Shown one piece after another: positions 34,919 through 42,830 of a DNA stretch of 64,000 nt (positions within the stretch are counted from its first letter, which is position 1; each line of letters opens with the position of its first letter). Both the position numbers and the translations under genes were made by a program. The DNA lies in the NCBI RefSeq assembly GCF_014236855.1, contig NZ_CP051261.1, positions 1,612,001 to 1,676,000 of the forward strand, written 5' to 3'. The stretch is from Xanthomonas sp. SI (GTDB lineage Bacteria; Pseudomonadota; Gammaproteobacteria; Xanthomonadales; Xanthomonadaceae). The notes beneath the pieces were generated by a model, which saw nothing but the letters and a program-made list of their open reading frames with translations, did not search any database and was not told where the DNA came from.

Positions 34919-36550
34919 TCAGTACACGTCGCGCCGATAGCGTCCTTCCAGCAGCAGGGTTTCCTTGCCCAGCCGCCCCAGCACCTCCTCCAGCACCGCG
35001 TCCACGCCGGGGGCCATGCCGCGCAGGCTGCCGCAGACGTAGATCGCCGCGCCTTGCGCGACCCAGTCGCGCAGGTCCGCTGCGGCCGCGCGCAGCGCAT
35101 CCTGCACGTAGCGGTGCGCGCCGGCATCGCGCGAGAACACCGCATCCAGTCGCTGCAGCGCGCCGTGCGCCAGCCAGGTGCGCAGTTCCTCGCCGTAGTG
35201 GTCGTCGTGCGCGGCATGGCGTTCGCCGTACAGCAGCCAGGTGCGGGACGCGCCGGCGTCGACGCGTGCACGCAGGTGCGCGCGCAGGCCGGCGATGCCG
35301 GTGCCGTTGCCGATCAGGATCAGCGGCCGCGACGGATCGGCCGGCGGATGGAAGTTCGGATTCGGGCGCAGCCGCAGCGCGATCTCGGCGCCGAGCGGCG
35401 CGGTGTCGCATAGCCAGCCGCTGCCCAGGCCGGGCGTGCCGTCCGCATGCAGCGCGCGCCGCAGCAACAGGCGCAGCGCGCCGTCGCTGGGCATCGAGGC
35501 GATCGAGTATTCGCGATGCGGCAACGGCTGCAGGCGCGCGGCCACGGCTGCGGGCGCAGTGCCGGCGACCTGGTCCGGCGCCGGCAGGTGACTGCGCGCC
35601 AGCAGCGCGGCCAGCGTCGTCGGCGCTTGGCCGGGACGCTGCAGCGTCGCAGTGCCGTCCAGGCCGCTGGCCTGCAGCCAAGCCTGCACCACAGCGGCGC
35701 CATGGCACGGACCGATCTCGGCCAGGTCGCCGGCCTGCCACGCAGTCAGTGCGCCGTCGGCGGGCAGCAGCGCCAGTTCGAACACCGCGCCGCCGACACT
35801 GCCGGGATTGCACAGGCGCCGCTGCTGCAACTGCCAGCGCTCATAGGCCGGCGGACTCCAGTCGGGTTGCTCGCTGCCACCGGCGAGCTGGCCGAGCAAT
35901 TGCTGCCAGTGGCGCAGCGCGGCGTCGTCGGCGTTGTCCACGTCGATGCGGTCGAACAGCGGATGCGCGCCGTGCTGGCGCAGCCAGGCATCGAGCTGGC
36001 GGCCGAACGCGCAGAAGTGGTCGTAGCGGCGATCGCCCAGCGCCAGCAGCGCGTAGCCCAGCTGCGGCAAGGCCGGCGACTGCGCCATCGTCTTGCGCAG
36101 GAACGGCAGCGCGTGGTCGGGCGGATCGCCTTCGCCGCTGGTGCTGACCACGAACAGCGCCTGCGTCGCGCCGGCCAGGTCGGCCGCGGTGACGTTCTGC
36201 AAGGGCAGCACGCGCACCGCCTGGCCCGCTGCGCGCAATGCCGCGGCACTGCGCAGTGCGAGCTGCTGAGCGAAGCCGGTCTGGCTGGCCCAGGCCAGCA
36301 GCAGCGGCGCATCGCCCTGCTTGCCGGTGCGCCGCGCGCCGCGGTGGCCGCGCCACCACAGCCATAGGCAGGCGGCCGCGTAGGCGGCCGTTGCCAGCGC
36401 TGCGTAAAGGATGCGCTGCTGCGATGGCGCGCCGTTCCACCATGGCTGCGGATGCAGCCGCAGCAGGGCATAGCCGATCGCGCCCAGCAGCGCGAACGCC
36501 GTCACGTGCCCGACGGCATTCCAGTTACGTTGCGACCGCGCCCGGGTCAT
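34919..36550 (-). CDS. Membrane-anchored flavodoxin/NADPH-flavin reductase (sulphite reductase alpha-like)
   Basis: The 543-residue protein has two N-terminal membrane helices (about 14-31 and 45-64). A flavodoxin-like FMN domain follows (LLLAWASQTGFAQQLA, VVSTSGEGDPPDHALPFL, ALGDRRYDHFCAFG). The rest is a FAD/NADPH reductase: REYSIAS for FAD, LILIGNGTGIAGLRAHL for NADPH, and YVCGSLRGMAPGVD near the end. It is related to CysJ but lacks a sulphite reductase partner here. Overlap with apbE by four bases and the iron-uptake context suggest it feeds electrons across the inner membrane to the PepSY and DUF2271 proteins. Confidence 0.88.
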   Translation of the reverse strand: MTRARSQRNWNAVGHVTAFALLGAIGYALLRLHPQPWWNGAPSQQRILYAALATAAYAAACLWLWWRGHRGARRTGKQGDAPLLLAWASQTGFAQQLALRSAAALRAAGQAVRVLPLQNVTAADLAGATQALFVVSTSGEGDPPDHALPFLRKTMAQSPALPQLGYALLALGDRRYDHFCAFGRQLDAWLRQHGAHPLFDRIDVDNADDAALRHWQQLLGQLAGGSEQPDWSPPAYERWQLQQRRLCNPGSVGGAVFELALLPADGALTAWQAGDLAEIGPCHGAAVVQAWLQASGLDGTATLQRPGQAPTTLAALLARSHLPAPDQVAGTAPAAVAARLQPLPHREYSIASMPSDGALRLLLRRALHADGTPGLGSGWLCDTAPLGAEIALRLRPNPNFHPPADPSRPLILIGNGTGIAGLRAHLRARVDAGASRTWLLYGERHAAHDDHYGEELRTWLAHGALQRLDAVFSRDAGAHRYVQDALRAAAADLRDWVAQGAAIYVCGSLRGMAPGVDAVLEEVLGRLGKETLLLEGRYRRDVY

Positions 36551-40523: not shown

Positions 40524-42830
40524 TCAGAACTTGATTTCGGCGCTCAGCATCGCCGAGCGCGGCGCGCCGGGCGTGTAGCGGAAGCCGCTCTTGTTGATGG
40601 CCGCGACGTAGTCCTTGTCGAACACGTTGTACACGTTCAGGCGCAGGTTGAAGTGGTCGTTGATCGGGTAGCTCACGATCGCGTCCCATACCGTATACGA
40701 CTTCACCAAGGCCGGCGTGCCCACCGCGCCGTCGGTGCCGCGCTTCATCTCGCCTGAGTAGCGGGCGCCGCCGCCGACGGTCAGGCCGAACGGCAGGGTA
40801 TAGGTGGTCCAGGCGGTGAACGCGCTGTCCGGGGTGTAGGCCAGGTCCATGCTGCCGTCCTGCGACACCTTGGCGCCTTGCTTCACCTGCGCGTCGAGCT
40901 TGGTGTAGCCGGTGGAGATCGACCAGTTGTCGCTGAGCTTGCCGACCGCCGACAGCTCCACGCCCTGCACCTGCTTCTCGCCGGTCTGGTAGTACAGCCC
41001 ATCGCTGCCCTGCGCGATCTCGTTGCTGACGTCGGTGCGGAACAGCGCCATGGTCACGAACAGGTTGTCGTCCAGGAAGTTCCACTTCGTGCCGACTTCG
41101 GCGGTCTTGGCCTTCTGCGGGTCGAAGCTGGGATTGTTGGCGTTGTTGGCCGACGCGCTCAGTTCCAGCGCGCTGCCGCCGGGAGGCTGCTGCGAGATCG
41201 CGTAGTTGGCGTACAGGCTGATGTTATCGGCCGCCTTGTAGACCGCGCCGAGCTTCCAGCTGAACAGCGTATCGGACACGTCGTCGTCCACGCCGACCGC
41301 GGTGGTGCAGGGCACGGCGGTGGAGGTGGCGGTGGTGCAGGTCAGGCTGTTGAAGTCGGTCTTGTAGCGGTCGGCGCGCACGCCGGCGGTGACCAGGAAG
41401 CTGTCGCCGAACTTCAGCGTGTCGAAGGCGTAGGCCGAGAACGTGGTGGTGGTGCCCTTGCTGTGCGCGCCGTTGCGCGCGGTGAACAGCGGCGTGGTGT
41501 TCCAGTCCGGGGCGTAGACGTTGGCCGGGTTGGCGGCCAGCCAGGCGGCGCGGTTGACGATGTTGTGGCCCCAGCTCTGCAGTTCCTCGCGCGCGGCTTC
41601 CACGCCGGTGCTGAGGTTGTGCTGCACCGCGCCGGTGGCGAAGTCCACGCGCAGGTTCAGCTGGTCGGTGAGGATGGTGTACTCCTGGTCCTTGAACGTG
41701 GGCAGGCTGCGCGCCACCGTCCAGGTCGAGGTGTCGGCGGGGTTCGGCGTGCGCAGGTTGGCGGTGTTGGGCATGAACGCGAACAGCAGGTAGTCCTGTT
41801 CGTTGCGGCCCCAGCGCGCGGTGTTGGTCAGCTTGACCGTGTCGGAGAAGTCGTGCTCGAAGCGGAAGGTCGCCATCTTCGCGGTCACGTCGTCGTGGTC
41901 GTAGCGGGTGCCGTAGAAGTTCTCGCTGTCCACGCGCGGGGCGTTGGTCAGCCACGGACGCGCGGGATCGGGCGAGGTGTAGCCGGGCAGGCCGAAGGTC
42001 GGCACGCCGCCGTCGGGCACGTTGTCCTGCTTCACGTACAGCAGGTCGAGGTAGTAGCGGGTGTCGCTGCCGAGGCCGAATACCAGCGACGAGGCCAGGC
42101 CCCAGCGCTTGTTGTTGACGTGGTCGCGGCCGATCGCATCGCTGTCCTGGCCCATCACGTTCAGCCGCAGCGCGCTGCTGGCGCCCAGCGTCTGGTTCCA
42201 GTCCGCGGTGACGCGGCGCTGGTTGTCGCTGCCGCCGGACAGCGTGCCGCTGACCGCATCGGTCAGGTTCGCCTGCTTGGTCACCAGGTTGATCGCGCCG
42301 GTCGGCGCGCTGCGGCCGTTGTCGGTGCCGGCCGGACCCTTCTCGACCTCGATCTGCTCGATGTTGAACACATCGCGCGAGATCGAGCCCAGGTCGCGCA
42401 CGCCGTCGACGAAGATGCTGCTGGAGCTGTCGAAGCCGCGCATGTAGATCGCATCGCCAGTGGTGGTGTTGCCGTTCTCGCCGACATAGAAGGTACCCAC
42501 GCCGGGGCTGTTGCGCAGCGCTTCGGTCAGCGTGGTGGCGCCCTGCTCGTTGAACAGGTCCTTGCTGATCACGTTGATGGTCTGCGGGGTGTCGATCAGC
42601 GGCTGGGTGAACTTGGGCGAGTCCGGCACTTCCACCAGGTAGCGCTTGGCGCGCTGCGCTTCCACGTCGACCTTGCCCAGGGTGGTGGGCTGGTCGGCGG
42701 CCGCTGCATCGGCGGCGAGCGCCGGAGAGGACAGCAGGCTCAGGCCGCTCAGCAGTGCGGCGGCGGTGAGGGTCTGCGCGGAGACCTGGCGGGAAACGGC
42801 GTGCTTGCGGCTCTTGATCGGGGAGGTCAT
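40524..42830 (-). CDS. TonB-dependent catecholate siderophore receptor (Fiu/PiuA type)
   Basis: The 768-residue precursor has a long signal peptide ending in SSPALA. The TonB box region and plug follow (DTPQTINVISKDLFNEQGATTLTEALRNSPGV, and EVEKGPAGTDNGRSAPTGAINLVTK). The 22-stranded barrel ends in SAEIKF with a terminal aromatic residue, as outer-membrane proteins need. The plug and the adjoining piuC gene favour Fiu/PiuA, receptors for Fe-catecholates. The frame is open to 42986 upstream, but the signal peptide sets ATG 42830. Confidence 0.92.
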   Translation of the reverse strand: MTSPIKSRKHAVSRQVSAQTLTAAALLSGLSLLSSPALAADAAAADQPTTLGKVDVEAQRAKRYLVEVPDSPKFTQPLIDTPQTINVISKDLFNEQGATTLTEALRNSPGVGTFYVGENGNTTTGDAIYMRGFDSSSSIFVDGVRDLGSISRDVFNIEQIEVEKGPAGTDNGRSAPTGAINLVTKQANLTDAVSGTLSGGSDNQRRVTADWNQTLGASSALRLNVMGQDSDAIGRDHVNNKRWGLASSLVFGLGSDTRYYLDLLYVKQDNVPDGGVPTFGLPGYTSPDPARPWLTNAPRVDSENFYGTRYDHDDVTAKMATFRFEHDFSDTVKLTNTARWGRNEQDYLLFAFMPNTANLRTPNPADTSTWTVARSLPTFKDQEYTILTDQLNLRVDFATGAVQHNLSTGVEAAREELQSWGHNIVNRAAWLAANPANVYAPDWNTTPLFTARNGAHSKGTTTTFSAYAFDTLKFGDSFLVTAGVRADRYKTDFNSLTCTTATSTAVPCTTAVGVDDDVSDTLFSWKLGAVYKAADNISLYANYAISQQPPGGSALELSASANNANNPSFDPQKAKTAEVGTKWNFLDDNLFVTMALFRTDVSNEIAQGSDGLYYQTGEKQVQGVELSAVGKLSDNWSISTGYTKLDAQVKQGAKVSQDGSMDLAYTPDSAFTAWTTYTLPFGLTVGGGARYSGEMKRGTDGAVGTPALVKSYTVWDAIVSYPINDHFNLRLNVYNVFDKDYVAAINKSGFRYTPGAPRSAMLSAEIKF

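What the first reader, a model, noticed from the sequence alone, without database searches (positions are those of the whole stretch)
34919..42830. Iron locus with a complete proposed electron path and a candidate flavinylation target
Seven genes read as one system: TonB receptor, PiuC, PepSY membrane protein, DUF2271, DUF4198, ApbE and a membrane-anchored NADPH-flavin reductase. The DUF2271 protein has the segment DGVSGPT ending at Thr100, close to the ApbE target pattern Dxx(S/T)GA(T/S) with Pro for Ala. Electrons could go NADPH to reductase, to PepSY, to FMN on DUF2271, to ferric siderophore. Related ApbE/PepSY/DUF2271 gene groups have been noted in bacteria, but this path and the Pro-containing motif are not proven.
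Basis: partly seen in the sequence, partly recalled or inferred. Interest (0 to 1): 0.75.

Follow-up and report, generated by a model that had tools for sequence, protein, structure and literature searches.

The report
Flavin iron-reduction operon with retuned ApbE
This Xanthomonas gene cluster belongs to a published type of bacterial system that probably moves electrons out of the cell to free iron from its carriers; what looks new is that the enzyme that glues on the flavin seems to have changed its active site to match an unusual proline in its target, and seems to sit on the wrong side of the membrane.

Summary
The seven genes are present as described. The electron path is essentially the published PepSY/DUF2271/DUF4198/ApbE model (Meheust 2021, passages), so it is not new.

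The Pro motif is real: it stands in the 120 best-listed of 7483 homologues, and Thr100 is invariant in 48 of 48 aligned DUF2271.

Two results I did not find in print:

(1) The neighbouring ApbE lost a Tyr three residues from its catalytic Ser. Over 210 loci (14 with S/M at -2 set aside), Tyr stays in 96 of 104 non-Pro loci and is lost in 85 of 92 Pro loci. A tree-based dependence test gives p 1.3e-10, and the column ranks first of 301. This supports Thr100 as the true target. The independent-pairs test is not significant, and some Alphaproteobacteria break the rule.

(2) This ApbE, the only one in the genome, shows no export signal although its target does. The same mismatch holds in 170 of 210 loci by the stricter reading. 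Flavinylation before Sec export is my best reading; it is inferred.

Flavinylation, haem and iron reduction were not tested.

The parts
40524..42830 (-). TonB-dependent receptor, Fiu type (catecholate)
   Evidence: Pfam; NCBIfam NF007349 Fiu 1083 bits over cut-off 686; best PDB sequence match Fiu 6bpm
42983..43001 (.). weak Fur-box-like site upstream of the receptor (12 of 19)
   Evidence: 61 of 1000 shuffles as good; over 65 family loci 20 reach 13 or more against 8 of 1300 shuffles
39764..40456 (-). Fe(II)/2-oxoglutarate oxygenase of the PiuC/YbiX group
   Evidence: NCBIfam NF003975 345.7 bits over cut-off 180
39653..39671 (.). weak Fur-box-like site upstream of PepSY (11 of 19)
   Evidence: 129 of 1000 shuffles as good; over 81 family loci 20 reach 12 or more against 33 of 1620 shuffles
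38972..39613 (-). PepSY_TM_like_2 membrane protein, probably TTG start; conserved His 64, 87, 189, 223 (250-aa numbering) predicted to hold two haems b
38422..38937 (-). DUF2271, Sec-type signal peptide, predicted FMN carrier
38638..38658 (-). codons of DGVSGPT; predicted FMN-linked Thr100
37586..38392 (-). DUF4198 protein with signal-like N-terminus, role unknown
   Evidence: N-terminus
36547..37542 (-). ApbE FMN transferase without evident signal peptide (alternative ATG at 37560); only PF02424 match in the genome
36814..36831 (-). codons of ApbE SGDRWH (residues 238-243); usual form SGDYR; Arg241 stands where V. cholerae ApbE has residue 244 (Tyr)
34919..36550 (-). two hydrophobic N-terminal stretches plus flavodoxin and CysJ/P450-reductase-like FAD/NADPH domains; start overlaps the apbE stop by 4 bases

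Best explanation
The locus is a probably Fur-controlled iron-uptake set. Fiu brings ferric catechols into the periplasm. The diflavin reductase takes electrons from NADPH and passes them to two haems in PepSY, then to FMN bound covalently to Thr100 of DUF2271, which reduces ferric iron so that Fe2+ can enter through Feo. The cognate ApbE attaches the FMN and has been re-tuned: replacement of the active-site Tyr (SGDYR to SGDRW) goes with the Ala-to-Pro change in the target motif. Because this ApbE has no evident export signal and is the only one in the genome, it most likely modifies the DUF2271 precursor in the cytosol before Sec export. SHOWN: gene content, conservation, covariation, presence or absence of signal-like N-termini by my own tests. 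INFERRED: electron path, haems, FMN at Thr100, compartment, iron carrier.
For: Domains. One ApbE, one DUF2271, no FMN_bind, one FeoB_C match in the genome. The 120 best-listed DUF2271 homologues all hold G-P-T. Thr100 invariant in 48 of 48. ApbE present in 148 of 149 DUF2271 genomes searched; in the one miss, G488, the contig ends 2.1 kb after DUF2271.

Covariation, Tyr/non-Tyr: discovery set non-Pro 34/3, Pro 1/63; second set 41/2 and 1/15; third set 21/3 and 5/7. Together LRT 52.1, p 1.3e-10; first of 301 ApbE columns, also outside the window's family. Switches recur inside Phenylobacterium and Brevundimonas. The column lies three after the Ser that aligns with catalytic Ser241.

Location: ApbE shows no signal by either of two tests in 178 of 210 loci; DUF2271 shows one by rule in 202 of 210; both hold in 170. 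PepSY four His. A S. maltophilia Fur-regulon table lists a like set (PMC6240677 passage).
Against: No experiment. The independent-pairs sign test on the tree is not significant (p 0.125, few pairs). Exceptions: 7 of 92 Pro loci keep Tyr, five of them in one alphaproteobacterial family, and 8 of 104 non-Pro loci lack it; the third set is much weaker than the first two. Pro also occurs in fused ApbE-DUF2271 proteins that carry a signal, so Pro does not require a cytosolic ApbE. Signals were judged by my own scores, not SignalP: the hydrophobicity cut of 2.4 would pass only 24 of 210 DUF2271, and the more sensitive rule passes 16 further ApbEs, 4 of them with Pro, that look false by eye. I know of no protein shown to cross Sec with covalent FMN. 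The PepSY model gave no clear PDB match.
Confidence: 0.6

Rival explanations
1. ApbE is exported by a route that my scores do not see (weak signal, partner or leakage) and flavinylates DUF2271 in the periplasm, as the textbook ApbE does.
For: ApbE is classically a periplasmic lipoprotein (review PMC12052999, passage). Family relatives with clear signals exist: 16 of 104 first-set rows. Fused ApbE-DUF2271 proteins carry a signal. My tests are crude: the rule finds a possible weak signal in 16 more ApbEs of 210.
Against: In the window 24 or 30 residues, with no hydrophobic stretch, precede the MGT motif of the domain, and none lies upstream in frame. 178 of 210 ApbEs fail both tests.
Confidence: 0.22
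2. The cytosolic ApbE serves another protein and the GPT Thr of DUF2271 is not modified.
For: Compartment mismatch. The motif departs from [ST]GA[ST], and Ala to Val at this place lowers flavinylation to about 50% in another protein (review section 8).
Against: No other protein of the set holds such a motif. Thr100 is invariant. The motif residue and the ApbE active site change together, first of 301 columns. No FMN_bind protein in the genome; other substrate families were not searched.
Confidence: 0.12
3. The covariation is real but indirect: Tyr loss and Pro gain both follow lineage or a third factor, without contact between the two residues.
For: The GPT rows of the window's family form essentially one clade. 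Independent-pairs test p 0.125. Five alphaproteobacterial loci keep Tyr with Pro.
Against: The pair ranks first in both directions and outside the window's family (table [[77,7],[6,25]], p 1.2e-13). Switches occur within two genera. A different motif change, S or M at -2 with Ala, also goes with Tyr loss in 14 of 14.
Confidence: 0.15
4. PepSY itself is the ferric-siderophore reductase, as FoxB is held to be, and DUF2271-FMN does something else.
For: HiuB of Caulobacter is a PepSY protein needed for siderophore use in a three-gene operon that does not include DUF2271 or ApbE (abstract and passages).
Against: Here the genes are packed together. In Caulobacter the CCNA_03155-03159 set with PepSY, DUF2271 and DUF4198 matters under EDTA and is a Fur target (PMC12004947 passages).
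Confidence: 0.2

Closest known systems
PepSY-like flavinylation gene clusters (Meheust et al. 2021, eLife 10:e66878)
   Same: PepSY, ApbE, DUF2271, DUF4198, NAD-binding domain and TonB receptor; iron-reduction role proposed there (passages)
   Different: Pro instead of Ala before the target Thr; SGDRW instead of SGDYR in ApbE; ApbE without evident export signal. Neither point appears in the passages I read.
Caulobacter CciT-CciO pair and CCNA_03155-03159 (PMC12004947)
   Same: A receptor with a PiuC-type oxygenase, and a PepSY/DUF2271/DUF4198/flavin-reductase set, both Fur targets (passages)
   Different: Two separate loci there; neighbours here
FoxB and HiuB PepSY siderophore reductases
   Same: Membrane protein with His ligands for haems (passages)
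   Different: Here a PF16357 protein next to DUF2271, ApbE and a diflavin reductase; no sequence or clear fold match to a solved structure was found
Cytosolic ApbE of Klebsiella pneumoniae
   Same: ApbE without signal peptide (review passage)
   Different: Its known target is a soluble fumarate reductase; here the likely target has an export signal

Membership tests
PepSY-like flavinylation cluster | PF03929 or PF16357 protein next to ApbE/DUF2271 | tested here: met
PepSY-like flavinylation cluster | signal peptide in at least one of the target genes | tested here: met
   DUF2271 signal by rule; not by SignalP
Periplasmic ApbE of the usual kind | N-terminal export or lipoprotein signal | tested here: not met
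   own scores, not SignalP
ApbE enzyme | PF02424 domain with catalytic Ser/His | tested here: met
   Ser238 and His254 align with the Ser and His of solved ApbEs
ApbE substrate | D-x-x-[ST]-G-A-[ST] motif | tested here: not met
   DGVSGPT, Pro for Ala
ApbE substrate | covalent FMN on the last Thr | not testable with these tools
   only indirect support: covariation
FoxB-like diheme PepSY reductase | four His placed for two haems | tested here: met
   His64 and 189 invariant, His87 and 223 at 90% or more in 43 sequences; the placing is inferred from predicted helices
FoxB-like diheme PepSY reductase | fold like FoxB 7ABW | tested here: inconclusive
Fiu receptor | NCBIfam equivalog cut-off | tested here: met
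   1083 against 686 bits
PiuC/YbiX group oxygenase | NCBIfam cut-off | tested here: met
   NF003975 345.7 against 180 bits; the YbiX model itself 298.1 against 399 is not met
CysJ sulfite reductase flavoprotein | NCBIfam equivalog cut-off | tested here: not met
   226.3 against 668.15 bits; shares flavodoxin and FAD/NADPH domains only

The most novel reading that the evidence does not exclude
A whole branch of ApbE enzymes works in the cytosol on a target that is then exported unfolded through Sec with FMN already attached, and these enzymes have repeatedly re-tuned their active site, by loss of the Tyr three residues after the catalytic Ser, to match target motifs ending in Pro-Thr. That would give a readable specificity code for protein flavinylation and a breach of the rule that cofactor-bearing proteins leave by Tat.
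Probability: 0.4. Interest if true: 0.82.

Novelty: new variant of a known kind. Interest (0 to 1): 0.6.

Why it matters
If the covariation reflects contact, one enzyme residue predicts which target motif an ApbE accepts. That would help to find unseen flavinylated proteins and could give orthogonal flavin tags. If the location is right, cells can modify an exported protein before Sec export and need no FAD supply outside the cytosol.

Tried and rejected
Rejected: the idea that G-P-T is chance or decay. The idea that Pro simply needs a cytosolic ApbE: fused ApbE-DUF2271 proteins have R-P-T and a signal. Tat export of DUF2271: RRx[FLIVM] in only 3 of 146 signals.

Led nowhere: Fur boxes at the window's own sites are weak. 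Fold searches gave only weak C2-like hits for DUF2271 and nothing clear for PepSY; FoxB was not among the listed rows. Sequence searches of the PDB with PepSY and DUF2271 gave no hit. The independent-pairs test lacked power. Literature searches on DUF2271, flavinylation with PepSY or Xanthomonas, ApbE location, ApbE coevolution, PiuC and Sec cargo listed nothing that I recognised as the covariation or the location mismatch; I read passages, one section and abstracts, not whole papers.

Choices and dropped rows. The Tyr hypothesis was found on the first set and then tested on L207-L286 and L287-L326. First set: 158 loci (L049-L206) plus window; sub-cut-off matches and two contig-end fragments (G078, G521) were not fetched; 11 fused set aside; of 148 separate rows 121 had a nearby ApbE, and 104 of these also had PepSY and entered the tree. 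Second set: 80 loci, 67 with a readable ApbE. Third set: 40 fetched, 39 readable; not fetched were 7 weaker places and 10 lower-scoring places. Loci with S or M at -2 and Ala at -1 (14) were set aside from the 2x2 table.

The signal score cut of 2.4 was chosen after seeing the gap (signal type 2.6-3.4, others up to 2.3) and is insensitive: only 24 of 210 DUF2271 reach it. The report gives both counts. In 20 of the 210 rows no start codon left room for a signal; these count as without. A first count used a wrong column and was redone. The family names given to codes f1, f118 and f223 are my inference from named look-alikes.
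Full report
WHAT IS THERE. NCBIfam calls the receptor Fiu, 1083 bits against a cut-off of 686, and the oxygenase an Fe2+-dependent dioxygenase of the PiuC/YbiX group. The best PDB sequence match of the receptor is Fiu itself, so the likely cargo is a ferric catechol; that last step is inference. The reductase has two hydrophobic N-terminal stretches, a flavodoxin domain and CysJ/P450-reductase-like FAD/NADPH domains, but stays far under the CysJ cut-off. In the genus sample DUF2271 is patchy: 11 of 20 genomes.

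WHAT IS KNOWN. Meheust et al. 2021 (PMC8238504; passages, outline) reported 3220 PepSY-like flavinylation clusters, among them 2833 with DUF2271, 1500 with DUF4198 and 231 with a TonB receptor, and 1077 PepSY-like genes with a NAD-binding domain. They showed that one DUF2271 is flavinylated by its ApbE at an [ST]GA[ST] motif and proposed iron reduction. In Caulobacter a Fur-regulated set with PepSY, DUF2271 and DUF4198 matters under EDTA, as does a separate receptor/oxygenase pair (PMC12004947, passages). A table of the S. maltophilia Fur regulon lists pepSY with a neighbouring putative periplasmic protein, and fhuA with piuC, at nearby locus tags (PMC6240677, passage); I did not check that these are orthologues.

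ANATOMY. In PepSY, His64 and His189 are invariant and His87 and His223 are kept at 90% or more in 43 sequences. In the model His64 and His87 lie in helix 44-88, His189 at the end of helix 181-190 and His223 at the end of helix 195-224, which would allow one haem on each side of the membrane. Fold searches did not confirm the likeness to FoxB. DUF2271 is predicted as a mostly beta protein with Thr100 in a loop of moderate confidence. The genome holds one FeoB_C match, so reduced iron has a way in.

THE PRO MOTIF IS REAL. The 120 best-listed of 7483 homologues all hold D-x-x-[ST]-G-P-T. Thr100 is invariant in 48 of 48 aligned proteins that include GAT and GPT types. Of 149 genomes with DUF2271, 148 hold an ApbE; in the one miss, G488, the contig ends 2.1 kb after DUF2271. 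Of 63 GPT genomes, 52 have exactly one ApbE, 10 have two and one (G488) has none (counted by hand from the listing).

ENZYME AND TARGET CHANGE TOGETHER. On the first set of loci I looked for ApbE columns that separate GPT from GAT loci; SGDYR against SGDRW stood out. By alignment to the solved ApbEs 6nxi and 6nxj (which I take to be the V. cholerae enzyme and its H257G mutant: they differ at that His; the organism is recalled) the column is residue 244, three after Ser241. The review names Ser241, His257 and Asp285 as the conserved centre, and reports in Listeria FmnB an Arg five residues after the matching Ser that interacts with the catalytic His (passages). I then tested two sets fetched afterwards.

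Counts, given as Tyr/non-Tyr. Set a: non-Pro 34/3, Pro 1/63. Set b (80 named records fetched, 67 usable): non-Pro 41/2, Pro 1/15. Set c (40 fetched, 39 usable): non-Pro 21/3, Pro 5/7, Fisher p 0.0069. Together: non-Pro 96/8, Pro 7/85. A two-trait dependence test on the operon tree (motif columns left out) gives LRT 52.1, df 4, p 1.3e-10. The fitted rates put Tyr loss before Pro gain. The column ranks first of 301 in ApbE, and first of 298 outside the window's family. In the other direction the Pro column ranked first of 154 DUF2271 columns in the first two sets. Phenylobacterium shows GPT with WR (4 loci), GAT with YR (2) and SAAT with YR, YQ or YH (4); Brevundimonas shows GPT with WR or GR and GAT with YR. 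Motifs with S or M at -2 and Ala at -1 lack Tyr in 14 of 14. Fused ApbE-DUF2271 proteins with Pro at -1 also lack Tyr: 8 of 8.

AGAINST IT: the independent-pairs sign test does not reach significance (p 0.125). Third-set support is weak. Five loci of one alphaproteobacterial family (probably Sphingomonadaceae) keep Tyr with Pro; they have Asn or Ser as first motif residue and SGN in ApbE, though near relatives with Asn first have lost Tyr (L312, L314). Eight non-Pro loci lack Tyr.

THE COMPARTMENT PUZZLE. The window's ApbE has 24 or 30 residues before the MGT motif, with no hydrophobic stretch, and none upstream in frame; it is the only ApbE in the genome. I used two home-made tests. The first is a hydrophobicity score: PiuC, a cytosolic control, never exceeded 1.8 in 68 proteins. 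The second is a rule with charge, hydrophobic core and cleavage site: it found a signal in 146 of 148 DUF2271, 113 of 120 DUF4198 and 1 of 68 PiuC. Over all 210 loci 16 ApbEs pass the score at 2.4, none of them among the 92 with Pro; the rule adds 16 weak cases, 4 with Pro; 178 pass neither. DUF2271 passes the rule in 202 and looks signal-like by eye in the other 8. ApbE without and DUF2271 with a signal hold together in 170 of 210 by the strict count. The score alone is no fair yardstick, since only 24 of 210 DUF2271 reach 2.4. On the tree of the first set, GPT loci of the window's family and their nearest GAT loci differ in both traits, and a six-locus group of the same family has GAT without a signal. 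Since fused proteins combine Pro with a signal, I treat the two traits as separate. The review states that cytosolic ApbEs exist, known for a soluble fumarate reductase (passage). The most direct reading is labelling of the DUF2271 precursor before Sec export. A 2011 paper on SecYEG and preproteins with bulky rigid groups is listed in a review (title seen in its reference list); its result I only recall. This step is inferred.

REGULATION. Fur-like sites upstream of the receptor and of PepSY are weak here but enriched over family loci. With the S. maltophilia table I think Fur control of two units likely.

VERDICT. A new member of a published system, with a variant target motif that its enzyme appears to have adapted to, and a location mismatch that looks general for this class and that I did not see discussed in the passages I read.

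Noticed in passing
window 43130-48992 (-): A Rieske protein, an acetyltransferase-like ORF (by eye) and a SUF iron-sulfur set (SufS-, SufC- and SufB-like) lie just upstream of the receptor, so the stretch is iron-themed.
   Followed up: partly
window 29798-30505 (+): EF-hand protein of 235 aa with several calcium-binding repeats.
   Followed up: no
L054, L055, L134, L136, L141, L182, L184 and others: Fused ApbE-DUF2271 proteins (11 in the first set) with a signal-like start, motif R-P-T in 7 of 11 and SGH in most ApbE parts: a second self-contained type with its own motif.
   Followed up: partly
L065 (G392:C3): A DUF2271 fused to a badly degraded ApbE domain, motif DGLSGAT kept; a normal-looking ApbE match lies elsewhere in that genome.
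   Followed up: no
L300, L301, L306, L307, L310: Group (probably Sphingomonadaceae) with Asn- or Ser-first Pro motifs and SGNY in ApbE, an exception to the Tyr rule and perhaps another solution.
   Followed up: no
L142, L153, L237, L248, L253, L286 and others: Many signal-less ApbEs outside the window's family begin with a short stretch like M-x-R-V-[LA]-[VI]-P (seen by eye) of unknown use.
   Followed up: no
genus sample G000-G019: DUF2271 is present in 11 of 20 genomes of the genus, so gain or loss is frequent.
   Followed up: no
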